Positions 3,634 to 35,098 of a stretch of DNA of 64,000 nucleotides are shown here, piece by piece; the stretch's first letter is position 1, and every line of letters begins with the position of its first letter. Both the position numbers and the translations under genes were made by a program. Where the stretch lies: positions 1,984,001-2,048,000 of the forward strand of contig NZ_AP019711.1 in assembly GCF_010537335.1 (NCBI RefSeq), in the 5' to 3' direction. A model generated the notes under the pieces. It was not told the DNA's origin and did not search any database. It was given only the letters and a program-made list of their open reading frames with translations. This DNA comes from Amedibacterium intestinale (GTDB lineage Bacteria; Bacillota_I; Bacilli_A; Erysipelotrichales; Erysipelotrichaceae).

Positions 3634-4752
3634 TTACGCATAAGTTCGCACTGGCAAAACAAGCTGCAAGACACTGTCATCATCAATTGCCTGCATGATA
3701 AATGGCTTCATTTCTCCGCATAGACTAAATTTAACAAGCCCACCGTTAAGAGCCTTCAATGCATCAAATACATAACGTCCATTACAGCTGATTTCTAAAG
3801 AGTTACCAGTAAAGCTGGCACTGTTTAAAACCTCCATAGAAGATCCTACTTCTACAGAACGAGAAGATAATACACATTCCTCCTCACTTAATGAAAACTT
3901 AATAACAGAAACTCCATCGCTTTTTATAAAGCTGGCACGATCGATTGCCCCAAGCAAGTCCTGTGCATCAATAGTAAGTTCATAAGAAAACTCTAATGGA
4001 ATCAAACGATTTGTTTCTGGATATACACCATCAATCAAACGTGTCTGAAGAATCGTGTTTTTCATAATAAACTGTGCTTTTTTATCATTTACCGTAACTT
4101 CTACATCAAAGTCATCTTCTAAGGTCTTTACAACCTCCTGTAAAGATTTAGAAGGTATTGTTATATTAAAGTTTAAATCTTCATTAATTTCAACTGTTTT
4201 CTTCGCAAGACGATAAGAATCCGTTGCTACACAATGTAATGTTTTATTTTCACAAGAGAAATTAACACCTGTTAAAACAGGTCTTGTTTCTTTATCGCTT
4301 GTCGCAAAACTTGTCTGTGTAATTACTTTTTTTAATGTTTCACCTTTGATTACAAAACATTCCTGTGGTTTTGAAAAATCAATTGCAGGATATTCACTAG
4401 CTCTCATCCCATTAATTTTAAACTCTGCAGTATTACCAGATATTTTTGTAAGAGTTCCATCAATCATTTCAAATTCAACAACATCAGCATCAATTTTTCT
4501 AACAATTTCCAATATATATTTTGCTTCAATAACAATAGATCCCATTTCATTGATCTCTAAAATACATTCTTCATCTTTCTGTAATGTAGTTTGAATAGAA
4601 ACATCAGAATCACTACCAGTTAATACTAATTCATGTTCCTTCGCTTCAATCTTAATACCAGAAAAAGCAGGTAATGGTGAAAAATTAGAAATAGCTCTAG
4701 ATGCTACCGATAAAGCGTTATAAAAATCTTTTTTACTTACCTTGAAATACAT
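3634..4752 (-). CDS. dnaN: DNA polymerase III sliding clamp (beta subunit)
   Basis: Ring-shaped processivity clamp, 372 residues, full length. The three clamp domains are recognisable: the N-terminus MYFKVSKKDFYNALSVASRA with LPAFSGIKIEA, the middle ASEYPAIDF and ATDSYRLA region, and the C-terminus ending FIMQAIDDDSVLQLVLPVRTYA, the usual MPVR(T/L) clamp ending. The ATG at 4752 has a GGGAG site. It follows dnaA with a 148-base gap that holds two DnaA-box-like 9-mers. Confidence 0.98.
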   Translation of the reverse strand: MYFKVSKKDFYNALSVASRAISNFSPLPAFSGIKIEAKEHELVLTGSDSDVSIQTTLQKDEECILEINEMGSIVIEAKYILEIVRKIDADVVEFEMIDGTLTKISGNTAEFKINGMRASEYPAIDFSKPQECFVIKGETLKKVITQTSFATSDKETRPVLTGVNFSCENKTLHCVATDSYRLAKKTVEINEDLNFNITIPSKSLQEVVKTLEDDFDVEVTVNDKKAQFIMKNTILQTRLIDGVYPETNRLIPLEFSYELTIDAQDLLGAIDRASFIKSDGVSVIKFSLSEEECVLSSRSVEVGSSMEVLNSASFTGNSLEISCNGRYVFDALKALNGGLVKFSLCGEMKPFIMQAIDDDSVLQLVLPVRTYA

Positions 4753-30658: not shown

Positions 30659-31147
30659 ATGATCATTAGAAATGCAGAAAAAAAGGATATAGAAAGAATT
30701 TTAGAAGTCTTTGCAAGTGCGAAAGCATATATGAGAAAAAATGGAAATACAAAACAGTGGGCAGACAGTTATCCGGATACGGAAACAATTTTAGAAGATA
30801 TAAAAGAAAAACAGTTTTATGTTATGGAAGAAGACAATTGTATTCATGGAGTGTTTGCATTTATTATCGGAGAAGATCCAACTTATCGCATCATTGAAAA
30901 TGGAGAATGGAAAAGTGATACCCTGTATGGTACAATTCATCGTTTAGCAAGCACAGGCTACACAAAAAATGTTTTCCATGAAGTCATGAACTTCTGTTTA
31001 CAAAAAATTTCTCATATACGTGCAGATACACATGAAGATAATCTTATTATGCAGAATCTATTATTAAAAGAAGGATTTGAAGAATGTGGGATTATCTATG
31101 TCAGAGATCATACCCCAAGAAAAGCTTACCAGTATATAAAAGGATAA
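30659..31147 (+). CDS. GNAT-family N-acetyltransferase
   Basis: 162 residues from the ATG at 30659, giving the usual MIIRNAEKKDIERIL start; a GTG three codons earlier has no site. The later ADTHEDNLIMQNLLLKEGFEECGIIYV is the standard GNAT C-terminal motif. A tryptophan-containing TKQWADSYPD segment near residue 35 is seen in a subgroup of unknown substrate. It lies between dapF and the M20 gene but is not clearly in their operon. Confidence 0.88.
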   Translation: MIIRNAEKKDIERILEVFASAKAYMRKNGNTKQWADSYPDTETILEDIKEKQFYVMEEDNCIHGVFAFIIGEDPTYRIIENGEWKSDTLYGTIHRLASTGYTKNVFHEVMNFCLQKISHIRADTHEDNLIMQNLLLKEGFEECGIIYVRDHTPRKAYQYIKG

Positions 31148-31279
31148 GCTTTTTCTATATAAAGACTTTTAACATCTTTTTTATCGTCTTTCTACTTATC
31201 ATATATTTATATAAGTAATTTAAGAGCAGGAAATACGTAATTTTATTCATGTTATAGAAGAAGAAACATATTCTATAGT

Positions 31280-32377
31280 ATGAAAAGAATACAAAGATAT
31301 AGACAAGAACTTCATAAACGAGCAGAATTAGATATGCATCTTCCAAAAACAATATCTTATTTAAAAGAGCAGTTAAAAGGATTGCCATGTGAAATCATTG
31401 AGGTAATCCCTTCTTCTTTATGTGTATATTTTAATGCGAATAAGGAGTATACAGTTGCATTTCGAAGTGATATGGACGCATTGCCAATAGAAGAAGATGA
31501 AAGTCATACGATAGTATCTATGCAGAAAGGCGTTATGCATGCCTGTGGTCATGATGGACATATGGCAATGTTACTGGAAACAGCACAAAGAATAGTTAAA
31601 TATTATAAGTCTTTAACGTGCAATGTACTGCTTATTTTTCAGCCAGGAGAAGAAAGATGTGCAGGTGCAAAACGCTTATGTGAAAAGCATATTTTAAAAA
31701 CTTATCATGTAAAAGCTATTTTTGGTCTTCATCTTATGCCAAAGATAGAAAAAGGTAAAATTGCAGGAAAACCGGGACCTATGATGGCAGGTAGTCATGA
31801 GATTATGATTGATATAAAAGGAAAAGGAGTGCATACAGCACAATATCGAAAAGGGAAAGATGCTTTAGAATGTGCTGCATCTTTTCTTATGAATATTTAT
31901 GGAAGAATAAACCTATCACATGTTTTATGCCGTATCAATTATATGAAAAGTGGAACCACATGTAATATTGTTTCCGATTTAAGTCATATGGAAGGAACGA
32001 TACGCTATTTTGATAAGAATATGCTTAATCTTTATTTAAATAAAATGAATCAAATAAAGATAGAAATGGAAAAACGATATGGTACGAGTATAAAAATAGA
32101 ACTATCGGATGGATATCCTCCTTTATGTAATGATCAAACGATATTTCAAAATATTTTTCGATTAAATAATCCATTGTTGTATCAACTAGAAGAACCATAT
32201 TATACAAGTGAAGATTTTTCTTATTATCTACAAGAATGTCCTGGTGCATTTTTCTTTCTTGGTTTAGGTGATACAGCTCCATTACACAGTAAAACATTTG
32301 ATTTTGATGAGAGTGTATTGGACAATGGTGTAGAATTTTATGAATGGATATTACAACATAAAGATGAAATATGCTAG
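31280..32377 (+). CDS. M20 metallopeptidase, probable N-acetyldiaminopimelate deacetylase
   Basis: 365 residues. The di-zinc site is shown by FRSDMDALPI, HACGHDGHMAML and QPGEERCAGA, and the dimerisation domain by GKGVHTAQYRKGKDA. C-terminal YTSEDFSYYL and the LHSKTFDFDE segment complete the amidohydrolase pattern. The subgroup deacetylates N-acetyl-amino acids. Proximity to dapF-dapH suggests the acetyl-DAP step of lysine synthesis, but hippurate-type hydrolases look alike. The ribosome site is weak. Confidence 0.82.
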   Translation: MKRIQRYRQELHKRAELDMHLPKTISYLKEQLKGLPCEIIEVIPSSLCVYFNANKEYTVAFRSDMDALPIEEDESHTIVSMQKGVMHACGHDGHMAMLLETAQRIVKYYKSLTCNVLLIFQPGEERCAGAKRLCEKHILKTYHVKAIFGLHLMPKIEKGKIAGKPGPMMAGSHEIMIDIKGKGVHTAQYRKGKDALECAASFLMNIYGRINLSHVLCRINYMKSGTTCNIVSDLSHMEGTIRYFDKNMLNLYLNKMNQIKIEMEKRYGTSIKIELSDGYPPLCNDQTIFQNIFRLNNPLLYQLEEPYYTSEDFSYYLQECPGAFFFLGLGDTAPLHSKTFDFDESVLDNGVEFYEWILQHKDEIC

Positions 32378-32402
32378 ATAAAAAATTTGGAATAAAAAGT
32401 CA

Positions 32403-32432
32403 TTGACATTATTTTTAATAGTAGAGTATAAT
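32403..32432 (+). promoter_or_regulatory. Promoter of the antitoxin-like RNA
   Basis: TTGACA at 32403-32408 and TATAAT at 32427-32432, both exact consensus hexamers, are 18 bases apart. No gene with a ribosome site follows; the transcript would meet the terminator at 32471-32500 after about 60 bases. Confidence 0.8.
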
Positions 32433-32439
32433 AATTATG

Positions 32440-32500
32440 GATAAATTATCGTGATGATCCACAGGAAAGAAAAAGGAACGGCTGCCACCGTTCCTTTTTT
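32440..32500 (+). ncRNA. Candidate antitoxin RNA of a par/Fst-like module
   Basis: A roughly 60-base RNA is predicted between a consensus promoter and a strong hairpin terminator. Its first part contains AAATTATCGTGATGAT (32443-32458), and TCCACAGGAAA overlaps its end at 32458-32468. The complement of the toxin start region holds AAATTATCGTAATGAT (32576-32591) and TCCACAGGAAA (32596-32606) in the same order. The RNA can therefore pair with the toxin message across its start codon. It has no open frame of note. The start is estimated from the promoter. Confidence 0.72.
32471..32500. terminator. Shared bidirectional terminator of the toxin and antitoxin RNAs
   Basis: AAAAGGAACGG, loop CTGCCA, CCGTTCCTTTT make an 11-pair stem with T-runs on both strands. 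It lies between the two convergent promoters, so both transcripts end in it and share complementary 3' ends. Confidence 0.85.
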
Positions 32501-32513
32501 ATGCTGTTGTTGC

Positions 32514-32600
32514 CTATTTCTTCTTATCCATCCAATCGCAGATCCAATGACATATTGTACCTGCAATAATAGAAGAAATTATCGTAATGATAATCTCCAC
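32514..32600 (-). CDS. Fst-like small hydrophobic toxin candidate
   Basis: 28 codons from a GTG at 32600. The peptide has a long Ile-rich membrane helix (EIIITIISSIIAGTIC) and a polar tail with HWICDW, then MDKKK. The ribosome site is the full anti-16S sequence AAGGAGGTGAT, nine bases before the start. That site lies in the loop of a CAGGAA/TTCCTG stem. The 5' end (GTTGCC) can also pair with GGCAAC just after the stop. Size, helix and charged tail fit type I toxins of the Fst superfamily; the match is by features, not by a search. Confidence 0.65.
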   Translation of the reverse strand: MEIIITIISSIIAGTICHWICDWMDKKK

Positions 32601-32652
32601 AGGAAATCACCTCCTTCCTGTTCGTTTAGAGGCAGGCAACCTTGTAATTATA
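32600..32652 (-). promoter_or_regulatory. Toxin promoter -10 and leader hairpin
   Basis: TATAAT reads at 32652-32647 on the minus strand; the -35 is weak. A 40-base leader follows, with CAGGAA (32620-32615) pairing with TTCCTG (32605-32600) around the ribosome site. The leader structure would slow translation until processing or refolding. Confidence 0.5.
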
Positions 32653-32706
32653 ACATTGTAAAAAATAGGATAATAAAAAATAAACTATTTCTGTATGATA
32701 TTAAAA

Positions 32707-32744
32707 AAACTCAAGAACGCATGTGTATATGCAATCTTGAGTTT
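32707..32744 (-). terminator. Terminator of the PepSY lipoprotein gene
   Basis: AAACTCAAGA pairs with TCTTGAGTTT over ten bases with an inner GCAT/ATGC helix, and seven T follow on the minus strand. Confidence 0.8.
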
Positions 32745-32772
32745 AAAATTAACTGATAATTTTTAAAACAAT

Positions 32773-33672
32773 TTAATCGAAACTATCTACTTCCCATTTT
32801 AAGATGTTTCCAGTGTAGGCATCAATCTCAAATTCATATTCTTTATTATTGAAATTAATTTCACCTTCATATGTATATCTTCCATCATCTTTTTCTAATT
32901 CAATATAGATGTTAGAAGAAGTGGCTCCGCTTACTTTTGCCAAAGCAATAGACATTGCTTTATCTTTTGATATCATGCTGTTAGAATTAGAAGAATTATT
33001 GTTTTTTTCATAGTCTTTATCAGCTTTTAAAATAGTTCCATTGCTTTTCGCAATATCATATTCATATTCATAATTTCCAGTATAGAAACTTACAGAATAT
33101 GCTTCCTGTCCATGTTCCCAGTCATTTTCTATTTTTAATCCTTTTACATTGCTTTCACTTACTTTCGCATGAGCAAAGGCGATAGATTTCGCTTTTTCTT
33201 TGGTAATACTTGAAGAAGCAGGAGTTTTATTAGAAGAACTAGATTTGTTTGTATTGTTTGATGGAGTATTAGAAGCAGTAGTTTTATTATTTGAATTTGA
33301 AGTTGTATTTACAGTAGTGGAAGTATTGTTTTTCTTAGAATCTGTATTTTTTTCATTGTTCATTGCAGATGTTAAATTTTCAGATTCATTTTTAAGAATT
33401 TCACCTGTGCTGCGATCAATATCATAATCATATTTTTTATCTTTTGTGTAAAATTCAATAGAATATACATCTTTTCCATTTTCTTTATCTTTTGTTAGTT
33501 GTATAGATGCAACATCTTTTTCATTCACATTCGCATGATTATAAGCAGTAGTTTTTGCGCTATCTTCACTGATATAAGATCCATCTGAAGCTGTATTTGC
33601 CATTCCATTTGAACATCCGGCTAAAATTGCAACTGCTAATAATGGATAACATAATTTGTATAATTTTTTCAT
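32773..33672 (-). CDS. Lipoprotein with three PepSY domains
   Basis: 299 residues. The signal ends in the lipobox ILAGC (cysteine 20). Three PepSY repeats follow, each beginning ISEDSAKTTAYNHA-like and ending YDIDRSTGEIL-like, at about residues 34-92, 155-215 and 233-298. A 60-residue linker of Asn, Thr, Ser and Lys separates the first and second. PepSY domains are thought to restrain proteases or modulate the cell surface. The gene lies 61 bases after a sensor kinase and is probably part of that regulon. Confidence 0.88.
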   Translation of the reverse strand: MKKLYKLCYPLLAVAILAGCSNGMANTASDGSYISEDSAKTTAYNHANVNEKDVASIQLTKDKENGKDVYSIEFYTKDKKYDYDIDRSTGEILKNESENLTSAMNNEKNTDSKKNNTSTTVNTTSNSNNKTTASNTPSNNTNKSSSSNKTPASSSITKEKAKSIAFAHAKVSESNVKGLKIENDWEHGQEAYSVSFYTGNYEYEYDIAKSNGTILKADKDYEKNNNSSNSNSMISKDKAMSIALAKVSGATSSNIYIELEKDDGRYTYEGEINFNNKEYEFEIDAYTGNILKWEVDSFD

Positions 33673-33733
33673 ATTTCATCTCTCCTTTTTATCTTTTACA
33701 TCTATAATTTAACAGGCAAAGATTAAAGAAAGA

Positions 33734-35098
33734 TTAAAATATTTCATTTTTTTGAGAAATTTCAAAGAAAAATTTTGTTCCTTTATGCAGTGTGCTTTCA
33801 ACATGAATCACCCCATGATGTACCTCTATGATCCATTTCACCATGGATAAACCTAATCCACTGCTTTCACTATTTGATCTGGCACTATCTGCCTGATAGA
33901 AACGATTCCATATATATGGAAGGTCTTTTTCATGTATACCACATCCATCATCTTCCACACTTCCATAAATATATCCATCATGGCTTGTTAAAGAAACATG
34001 AATATGTCCATTTTCTTTTCCATACTGCAAAGCATTATTTAACAGATTCATCCACAAACGGATAAGAAGTGTCTGATCTCCATAAATTTGTATATTTTCT
34101 TCAATTTCATGTGTTATGGAAATATTTTTTTCTTTGGCATATAGCTGGCATTCTTCGATTGCCATTTCACATAATTCTGTAAAGTTTAAACGCTCCATAT
34201 GCAGTTTTTCTCTTCCCTGATCAGCTCTTGATAATAAAAGAAGCTGGGATAACATGTTTGTTAGTATGCGTGTTTTTTTATGGATAACAAGCAGTTTTTC
34301 TCTTATTGTTTCATCTAAATTATCTGTATCTAATAATGCATCACACTGCATAGAGATAACACTTAATGGAGTACGAAGTTCATGTGAAACATCGGATGTA
34401 AATTGCTGTTCACGTTTGATGGAGTCTTCTACCTGGTCTAATAATTCATCAAAAGTATTCGCAAGATGATAAATTTCATCTTTTCCATTTCCTAAATGAA
34501 TTCTTCTTGATAAATCTTTTTCTTTTTGTATGCTTTGTACAGTATTTGTTATCTGATACACAGGAGAGAGCGCTTTTTTTGCCATAAAATATCCAATAAC
34601 AGCAGTAAGAAATATAAATAAAGGCAGAAGTATGAGTGCAAGACGAAGTACATTATAAAAAGTAGATTCTGTCTTTGTTAAAGATAAGATTCCTCTTACA
34701 TAAAGCATTTCATTTTCATTAAGGGGAGTGGAAATATCCATAACATAATAACGTGTATGGTTACTGGTTATTTCACGAATATAACCATTTTCTAAGGGAG
34801 AATCATTGGAAAATCCATATGGAATTCTTCCATAAAGCAATTCTTTATACTGGTTATAGACAGATAAATATACACCATCTTCCAGCTGCATGAGTTCAGA
34901 ATCAAATTTTACTTTTCCATCATTGATATGAATTTCTTTTAAAGAGGAAGATACACGTTCTTCTAACGTATGTTTTGCATTTGTAAGTATCTGCTGCTCT
35001 CCCAAAGAAAATAGAATTCCTAAAATAATGCATACGATGATAGTGGATAAAAGAGTATAAAGGAGTGTTAGTTTTGCACGAATAGAAAATCGTTTCAT
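33734..35098 (-). CDS. Two-component sensor histidine kinase
   Basis: 454 residues: two membrane helices near 10-30 and 155-178 bracket an extracellular sensor, then HAMP, HisKA with the phospho-histidine in FTSDVSHELRTPLSV, and an ATPase with NLLNNALQYG, VEDDGCGI and GLGLSMVKWI. The extracellular domain has no family I recognise. The start overlaps the regulator stop by four bases. With a PepSY lipoprotein downstream, an envelope-stress or peptide-sensing role is plausible. Confidence 0.95.
   Translation of the reverse strand: MKRFSIRAKLTLLYTLLSTIIVCIILGILFSLGEQQILTNAKHTLEERVSSSLKEIHINDGKVKFDSELMQLEDGVYLSVYNQYKELLYGRIPYGFSNDSPLENGYIREITSNHTRYYVMDISTPLNENEMLYVRGILSLTKTESTFYNVLRLALILLPLFIFLTAVIGYFMAKKALSPVYQITNTVQSIQKEKDLSRRIHLGNGKDEIYHLANTFDELLDQVEDSIKREQQFTSDVSHELRTPLSVISMQCDALLDTDNLDETIREKLLVIHKKTRILTNMLSQLLLLSRADQGREKLHMERLNFTELCEMAIEECQLYAKEKNISITHEIEENIQIYGDQTLLIRLWMNLLNNALQYGKENGHIHVSLTSHDGYIYGSVEDDGCGIHEKDLPYIWNRFYQADSARSNSESSGLGLSMVKWIIEVHHGVIHVESTLHKGTKFFFEISQKNEIF

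What the first reader, a model, noticed from the sequence alone, without database searches (positions are those of the whole stretch)
32403..32652. Compact par/Fst-like type I toxin-antitoxin module
A 28-codon hydrophobic peptide on the minus strand has a full anti-16S ribosome site. A short RNA with a consensus promoter is made from the other strand. The two are convergent and share one bidirectional terminator (32471-32500). The RNA carries AAATTATCGTGATGAT and TCCACAGGAAA, which recur in order (15/16 and 11/11) on the antisense side of the toxin start (32576-32606), so it can pair over the GTG codon. The toxin message also has a hairpin around its ribosome site and 5'/3' end pairing. This is the architecture of the enterococcal par locus (RNA I/RNA II), here in the chromosome and apparently with its own toxin sequence.
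Basis: partly seen in the sequence, partly recalled or inferred. Interest (0 to 1): 0.88.

Follow-up and report, generated by a model that had tools for sequence, protein, structure and literature searches.

The report
Chromosomal Fst/par toxin–antisense RNA module
A bacterium, probably of the gut family Erysipelotrichaceae, carries in its chromosome a tiny gene pair, a 28-residue membrane-type peptide and a short antisense RNA that can pair over its start codon; this is a known kind of toxin-antitoxin pair, in a lineage where the standard models miss it.

Summary
Window 32403-32652 has the core anatomy of an Fst/par type I toxin-antitoxin locus. A GTG-started 28-aa peptide follows an AAGGAGGTGA site. 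A convergent short RNA has a 12/12 consensus promoter. Both share a 13-bp terminator, and two repeats in the short RNA can pair with the toxin message over its start codon.

It is not chance. The genome holds a second intact copy, and a relative lies on the small Amedibacterium intestinale plasmid pABar1. The repeats differ among the three, yet match within each. Of 92 peptide hits in 44 genomes of the order, 62 match their own downstream repeat better than that of any unrelated locus tested; 27 do not pass the 99th percentile.

The window peptide fits the family motif (SxxxG, W, charged tail) but hits no Fst model of Pfam or NCBIfam. The plasmid relative hits NCBIfam Fst at E = 2.5e-4, below cut-off. 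Hiding of the ribosome site is unclear and the pAD1 U-turn is absent.

Predicted pairing suggests that the two chromosomal pairs are partly insulated from each other. Transcription and toxicity are untested.

The parts
32403..32432 (+). Promoter of the short antitoxin RNA (RNA II): TTGACA-18-TATAAT
   Evidence: 12/12 consensus
32439..32503 (+). Predicted antitoxin RNA (RNA II), about 65 nt; ends inferred
   Evidence: start placed 7 nt after the -10, end at the T-run; folds
32443..32458 (+). Antitoxin-side direct repeat (DRa-like), AAATTATCGTGATGAT
   Evidence: 15/16 to 32576-32591, mismatch is a G-U pair in RNA
32458..32468 (+). Antitoxin-side direct repeat (DRb-like), TCCACAGGAAA
   Evidence: 11/11 to 32596-32606
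32469..32500 (.). Shared bidirectional intrinsic terminator
   Evidence: 5 of its pairs keep pairing through two-sided changes in paralogue or pABar1
32514..32600 (-). Toxin ORF, 28 aa, GTG start, SIIAG motif, W23 and charged tail
32576..32591 (-). Toxin-side DRa-like repeat, inside codons 4-9
32596..32606 (-). Toxin-side DRb-like repeat over the GTG start codon
32607..32616 (-). Shine-Dalgarno AAGGAGGTGA
32468..32643 (-). Predicted toxin message (RNA I), about 176 nt; ends inferred; 5' GGUUGCC pairs with 3' GGCAAC (5'-UH equivalent)
   Evidence: fold; consensus fold
32647..32652 (-). RNA I -10 (TGt-TATAAT, extended -10, weak -35)
   Evidence: TGn before the -10 also in paralogue, broken copy and pABar1

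Best explanation
This is a chromosomal type I toxin-antitoxin locus of the Fst/par family. RNA I is a folded message for a 28-aa peptide that would insert into the membrane. RNA II is an antisense RNA of about 65 nt, made convergently from a strong, presumably constitutive promoter. As in pAD1 the two would first touch at their complementary terminator hairpins, then pair at two short repeats over the toxin start codon, which blocks translation; RNA II has to be renewed, so if it falls the peptide is made and growth stops. Shown here: the sequence elements, the pairing potential, and the co-change of the repeats between copies. Inferred: transcription, toxicity, order of pairing and turnover. 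As to role, the likeliest is a selfish or stress-linked chromosomal cassette with relatives on small plasmids, duplicated in this genome; no host function is shown. The confidence given is for the locus class and its mode of regulation; that the toxin is active in this genome I put at about 0.75 (the first two rivals overlap with this explanation).
For: Anatomy. Intact paralogue 0.27 Mb away on the same chromosome with terminator and repeats of its own. Close relative on Amedibacterium intestinale plasmid pABar1, 74.5% DNA identity over 77% of the query, E = 2e-28. Start-codon repeats differ among the three, yet both sides match within each (TTTCCTGTGG, TTTTACATGG, ATGCCATGG). Own RNA pairs bind best by prediction: full ddG -28.9, -19.1, -23.9 kcal/mol against -1.6 to -12.4 for the six crossed pairs. 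92 of 102 rows tested (E up to 3.6e-5): 79 of 92 have a hairpin of 9+ effective pairs within 130 nt of the stop; own repeat beats the 99th percentile of unrelated swaps in 65 of 92 and every unrelated swap in 62 of 92; for the 64 of 92 whose peptide was not in the query alignment, 39 and 37. 16 of 17 viral-contig hits and 3 of 3 plasmid relatives beat all 92 swaps. Peptide motif as in the family review: SIIAG and W (PMC7472228). pABar1 peptide hits NF033608 Fst at 2.5e-4.
Against: The window peptide itself hits no Fst model. PF13955 has 2 of 60 relatives at E <= 0.1 and 0 of 60 over cut-off; NF033608 has 15 of 60 at E <= 0.1, not the window's genome among them, and 0 of 60 over cut-off. An anti-SD helix is only weakly above shuffles across relatives (11 of 79 at p <= 0.05), and in the window's fold the SD is mostly unpaired. 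No U-turn (YUNR) in the window's terminator. 27 of 92 peptide hits do not exceed the 99th percentile for repeats, 15 of 92 not the 95th. 8 of 92 have an inner stop. No transcript or growth data.
Confidence: 0.92

Rival explanations
1. A functional but non-toxic small membrane protein whose message is regulated by a cis-antisense RNA: the par regulation is real, but the peptide serves as a signal or a membrane modulator at normal levels.
For: Deletion of Fst/Ldr systems has not been tied to a phenotype, plasmid stability apart (PMC7472228, read in part). 84 of 92 hits have no inner stop.
Against: Family members show many effects on cells when overmade (PMC7472228). The broken third copy has lost toxin frame and antitoxin side together, as expected if an unguarded toxin is not tolerated, though the order of events is unknown.
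Confidence: 0.15
2. A decaying relic: an Fst locus that no longer makes an active toxin in this genome (GTG start, weak -35, D22 and M24 where relatives have K and L).
For: Window peptide departs from the ICKWLD consensus at two of six positions; RNA I promoter lacks a good -35; a third copy in the genome is broken.
Against: No element is interrupted; repeats match 15/16 and 11/11, the odd one a G-U pair; the TGn-type -10 is shared with the plasmid copy.
Confidence: 0.15
3. Phage holin-like peptide or a chance ORF beside a bidirectional terminator between two convergent genes.
For: Weak Pfam hit to LydA holin, E = 0.035; the locus does lie between a + strand M20 amidohydrolase and a - strand PepSY-domain protein.
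Against: Convergent 12/12 promoter, repeats that co-change between copies, and the same set of parts in many relatives. The holin score is far below its cut-off (14.6 against 28.4 bits).
Confidence: 0.02

Closest known systems
par-like locus of Amedibacterium intestinale plasmid pABar1 (NZ_AP019696.1, peptide at 3691-3771; no gene listed there in PLSDB's table)
   Same: Peptide MEIIIPIITSVIAGTICHLICKWLDKK, terminator, repeats, 5'/3' pairing, TGn-type -10
   Different: Own repeat sequences (ATGCCATGG); plasmid-borne; ATG start
par of Enterococcus faecalis plasmid pAD1 (Fst, RNA I/RNA II), as described in PMC7472228
   Same: Convergent RNAs, shared terminator, two direct repeats over the toxin start, 5'/3' pairing
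   Different: Here chromosomal; 28 rather than 33 aa; S in place of P in PxxxG; W present where Fst-pAD1 has V; basic rather than acidic tail; no YUNR in the terminator; RNA II predicted about 65 rather than about 40 nt
par-EF0409 of the E. faecalis chromosome, as described in PMC7472228
   Same: Chromosomal; its message is not covered by the pAD1 antitoxin, ascribed there to differing repeats, so insulation of co-resident pairs is already known in kind
   Different: Other lineage; here two intact copies lie in one chromosome
Ldr/Rdl (enterobacteria)
   Same: Peptide motif: LdrD residues 15-35 align with residues 8-28 of the window peptide (PDB 5lbj, E = 0.95)
   Different: Rdl regulation is more hok/sok-like according to PMC7472228; here the RNAs are convergent with a shared terminator
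C. difficile type I toxin (NCBIfam NF047374)
   Same: 9 of 15 members of alignment A1 hit it at E <= 1, best 5.5e-4; the window peptide does not
   Different: Far below its cut-off (60 bits); model length 51

Membership tests
Fst/par type I toxin-antitoxin | Two convergent promoters, toxin message and short antitoxin RNA | tested here: met
   By sequence: RNA II TTGACA-18-TATAAT; RNA I extended -10 only. Promoter activity not tested.
Fst/par type I toxin-antitoxin | Shared bidirectional intrinsic terminator | tested here: met
   Stem 32470-32499, folds on both strands; two-sided changes kept in relatives
Fst/par type I toxin-antitoxin | Direct repeats DRa/DRb giving complementarity over the toxin start | tested here: met
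   15/16 and 11/11; co-change in paralogue and pABar1; swap control
Fst/par type I toxin-antitoxin | Small peptide with a hydrophobic helix, [P/D/S/T]xxxG, W and charged C-terminus | tested here: met
   SIIAG ... W23 MDKKK; motif definition from PMC7472228. No membrane predictor was run; hydrophobicity judged by eye.
Fst/par type I toxin-antitoxin | Similarity to curated Fst models (PF13955, NF033608) | tested here: inconclusive
   Window peptide: no hit. Paralogue 0.15, pABar1 2.5e-4, one order mate 1.1e-4, one family mate 4.2e-4, all under the 26-bit cut-off; 7 of 15 members of A1 hit NF033608 at E <= 1
Fst/par type I toxin-antitoxin | 5'/3' end pairing of the toxin message (5'-UH) | tested here: met
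   GGUUGCC/GGCAAC in the fold of the window RNA; consensus of three loci keeps it with one broken pair in the paralogue
Fst/par type I toxin-antitoxin | Hairpin that hides the Shine-Dalgarno (5'-SL) | tested here: inconclusive
   Window: start codon paired, SD mostly in the loop; paralogue and pABar1: SD paired. 11 of 79 loci at shuffle p <= 0.05
Fst/par type I toxin-antitoxin | U-turn YUNR in the RNA I terminator loop (present in pAD1, not in all homologues) | tested here: not met
   No YUNR in the window's terminator. PMC7472228 says that not all homologues have it, so it is not counted as defining
Fst/par type I toxin-antitoxin | Peptide toxic, antitoxin RNA protective | not testable with these tools
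   needs expression
Ldr/Rdl | Ldr peptide profile | tested here: inconclusive
   PF13940 E = 0.079, 13.5 bits against a cut-off of 27
Ldr/Rdl | hok/sok-like regulation rather than convergent RNAs with a shared terminator | tested here: not met
   convergent with shared terminator

The most novel reading that the evidence does not exclude
The window's order carries a large Fst clade that the curated models miss, that lies on chromosomes, small plasmids and phage-like contigs, is often multi-copy (24 of 44 genomes with hits, broken copies included) and in places in tandem. After each duplication the repeats diversify on both sides, so that every copy becomes its own insulated toxin-RNA pair; selection for insulation, not for the toxin's target, drives its evolution. 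The two intact copies in this genome would be a test case.
Probability: 0.3. Interest if true: 0.5.

Novelty: new member of a known kind. Interest (0 to 1): 0.38.

Why it matters
Fst-like peptides with hits at E <= 3.6e-5 occur in 44 of 294 sampled genomes of the window's order, yet the two Fst models have no match over cut-off in the 60 relatives tried. Two pairs in one chromosome have diverged in their pairing sites, a natural set for asking how antisense RNA pairs keep apart after duplication. Par-like loci are already called ubiquitous in Firmicutes (PMC7472228), so the find widens a known family. What chromosomal Fst loci do for the host is an open question; this adds material but no answer.

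Tried and rejected
Phage holin: weak Pfam hit only, rejected. Ldr/Rdl: same peptide motif, other RNA arrangement. Rfam, window 31000-34000: 5 matches at E <= 5, none over its gathering score; SpF25 sRNA matched both strands around the terminator at E = 1.3 and 2.5, taken as chance or terminator likeness. Plasmid integration as the source of the chromosomal copies: of 2,701 bases of pABar1 backbone only one 43-base match (E = 8.8e-4) was found in this genome. Anti-addiction by the chromosomal antitoxin against pABar1: predicted pairing of the window's RNA II with the pABar1 message is poor (ddG -1.6 against -23.9 for its own), the paralogue's RNA II is intermediate at -12.4; not supported for the window locus. 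Species name: a named-genome scan with the M20 protein found no relative; with the ribonucleotide reductase, 311 relatives, best 80 kept, the top one Longicatena caecimuris at 76%, but records very near the window may be left out there. The family and order names are inferred from these and from pABar1; Amedibacterium as genus is a guess. Protein searches of plasmids and phages with the window peptide gave nothing, although one search finds pABar1 by DNA; I take this as the low-complexity filter acting on the peptide, so those negatives carry no weight. An exact 22-base pattern from the start region was absent from viral contigs. PHROGs: only unknown-function families, best E = 0.012. My first layout script ignored the strand of the matches; redid it. 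The first swap control mixed in orthologous loci; one search dropped similar downstream regions. Papers: two surveys I recalled (Fozo 2010, Coray 2017) are not held. Type I toxin + Erysipelotrichaceae + antisense RNA: 0 papers; pABar1: 0; Amedibacterium + toxin: 3 listed, unrelated by title. Of the Fst searches (21 papers, 20 listed; 194, 20 listed; 204, 15 listed) I saw listings and abstract openings, except PMC7472228 (parts 1 and 3 of 5 and passages) and PMC6563280 (passages, which reports Fst-like sequences in two Clostridium species). This is an open-licence library, so absence there is weak.

Full report
What is there. Between the end of a + strand M20 amidohydrolase (31280-32377) and a - strand PepSY-domain protein (32773-33672) lie 395 bases. 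They hold, on the - strand, a 28-codon ORF (32514-32600) with GTG start behind AAGGAGGTGA, and on the + strand a short predicted transcription unit with a perfect sigma-70-type promoter (TTGACA-18-TATAAT, 12/12) that ends at the same hairpin (32470-32499) as the ORF's message. The repeat parts of the two predicted RNAs form a duplex of -36.1 kcal/mol; 1000 shuffles of the short RNA reach -27.8 at best, mean -13.5. The 11-base repeat covers the GTG. RNA ends are inferred from promoter and terminator positions.

Copies in the same genome. A DNA search of the window's own 2.49-Mb single-contig genome found two more places. The first (L002) is an intact copy: MEIIITIFTSVIAGTICHCICKWLDNKK, ATG start, terminator, repeats TCATTACGATATTT and TTTTACATGG on both sides, and a convergent TTGACT-17-TATAAT promoter that I read by eye from the sequence printed. 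The second (L003) is broken: the toxin frame is shifted and no antitoxin-side repeat is seen beyond the terminator, where a 439-aa frame on the other strand ends that looks like an IS transposase ('transposase' is my reading, no search was run). Loss of toxin frame and antitoxin together fits a toxic peptide, but the order of loss is unknown. A profile search of the genome found these three and only weak further matches (E of 0.097 and above).

Plasmid relative. The Amedibacterium intestinale plasmid pABar1 (4,730 bp, non-mobilizable by PLSDB) carries, with no gene listed there in PLSDB's incomplete table, MEIIIPIITSVIAGTICHLICKWLDKK with terminator, repeats (ATGCCATGG and TTATTCCGATAATT) and the same GTTGCC...GGCAAC end pairing. 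By DNA the window locus matches it at 74.5% over 77% of the query, E = 2e-28. Of the pABar1 backbone only a 43-base match is in the window's genome.

Co-change of the repeats. In the three intact loci the start-codon repeat reads TTTCCTGTGG, TTTTACATGG and ATGCCATGG, and in each the antitoxin side carries the same letters. Predicted binding (change in free energy on joining the full RNAs) is -28.9, -19.1 and -23.9 for own pairs and between -1.6 and -12.4 for the six crossed pairs; with a slightly longer message the paralogue's own pair gave -24.0. So sequence evolves while pairing is kept, which is the strongest evidence in this report that the antisense contact matters. Cofolding ignores kissing loops, so the numbers rank pairs and no more.

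Wider test. From 15 peptides (the window's, the paralogue's and 13 from other genomes of the order, picked after their layout was seen) I searched 244 genomes of the family and 294 of the order (the sets overlap and are drawn from larger groups): 40 of 244 at E <= 0.05 and 52 of 294 at E <= 0.01 had a hit, the weakest of them probably chance. I took 92 of the 102 rows, in 44 genomes, and asked whether the start region of each matches its own downstream region better than those of unrelated loci. Own score exceeded the 95th percentile of 7,660 unrelated swaps in 77 of 92, the 99th in 65 and every unrelated swap in 62; for the 64 peptides not in the query alignment 50, 39 and 37; for the 39 of the window's own family 29, 20 and 20. 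Related loci are counted as separate rows, so these are not independent events. A hairpin of 9 or more effective pairs lies within 130 nt of the stop in 79 of 92. Of 17 IMG/VR contigs found by the alignment, 16 beat all 92 swaps, as do 3 of 3 plasmid relatives; two pairs of those contigs look the same in the parts compared. A composed consensus peptide finds 396 of 72,556 plasmid records at E <= 1, 329 of them Enterococcus, mostly with weak E-values. Three of these, from Streptococcus thermophilus, Enterococcus faecium and Carnobacterium, show the same layout with an AxxxE motif (no swap control).

Family. The review of the Fst/Ldr family (PMC7472228; [quoted passage not shown] It calls par-like loci ubiquitous in Firmicutes. 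The window has SIIAG and W23. A [PDST]xxxG at the same distance occurs in 63 of 84 uninterrupted relatives, and the W in 75 of 84. Curated models miss the clade: the window peptide hits no Fst model; PF13955 and NF033608 have 0 of 60 relatives over cut-off. Below cut-off, one order mate (1.1e-4), pABar1 (2.5e-4) and one family mate (4.2e-4) hit NF033608. In the PDB the only match is LdrD, E = 0.95 for the peptide and 0.078 for the profile.

What does not fit. SD hiding is unclear: in the window's fold the start codon is paired (0.85-0.99) but the SD is mostly in the loop, whereas paralogue and pABar1 pair it with an upstream stretch; across 79 of 92 loci the helix to the SD beats shuffles at p <= 0.05 in only 11. 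The window's terminator has no U-turn, which the review says is not universal. 27 of 92 hits do not pass the repeat test at the 99th percentile, 8 of 92 have an inner stop. The genus mate G001 shows no good hit (E = 0.038), so presence is patchy. Insulation of co-resident pairs is not new in kind: the review reports it for pAD1 and EF0409.

Verdict. The mechanism (antisense RNA over the start codon of a membrane peptide) is inferred from anatomy and co-change; toxicity is inferred from the family. It is a new member of a known kind.

Noticed in passing
L003 1500-1665 and 1650-2969 (G000:C1 about 1603877): Third, broken copy of the module in the same genome; toxin frame shifted, antitoxin side not seen, and a 439-aa frame on the other strand, transposase-like by eye, ends at the terminator.
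   Followed up: partly
G221:C12 19956-20706, G268:C6 162058-162487, G282:C252 8570-9030, G280:C74 3024-3438, G056:C148 23468-23922, G069:C7 33467-34030: Head-to-tail arrays of two or three Fst-like peptides, 327-501 bases apart.
   Followed up: partly
G274, G280, G037, G155, G069:C3, G134, G269 (places): In 7 of 8 interrupted peptides a stop lies at the conserved W codon (TAG or TGA; G134 has a further one). TGG is one transition from a stop, which may be the whole reason, but the recurrence is striking.
   Followed up: no
NZ_AP019696.1 (L223) and NZ_CP084015.1 (L224): Small plasmids of Amedibacterium intestinale and Mediterraneibacter gnavus carry par-like loci with no gene listed in PLSDB's (incomplete) table.
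   Followed up: partly
window 32705-32794 (-): Sub-threshold Rfam match to TD-2 RNA (35.9 bits, gathering score 48.7) at the 3' side of the PepSY gene; the stretch holds an inverted repeat.
   Followed up: no
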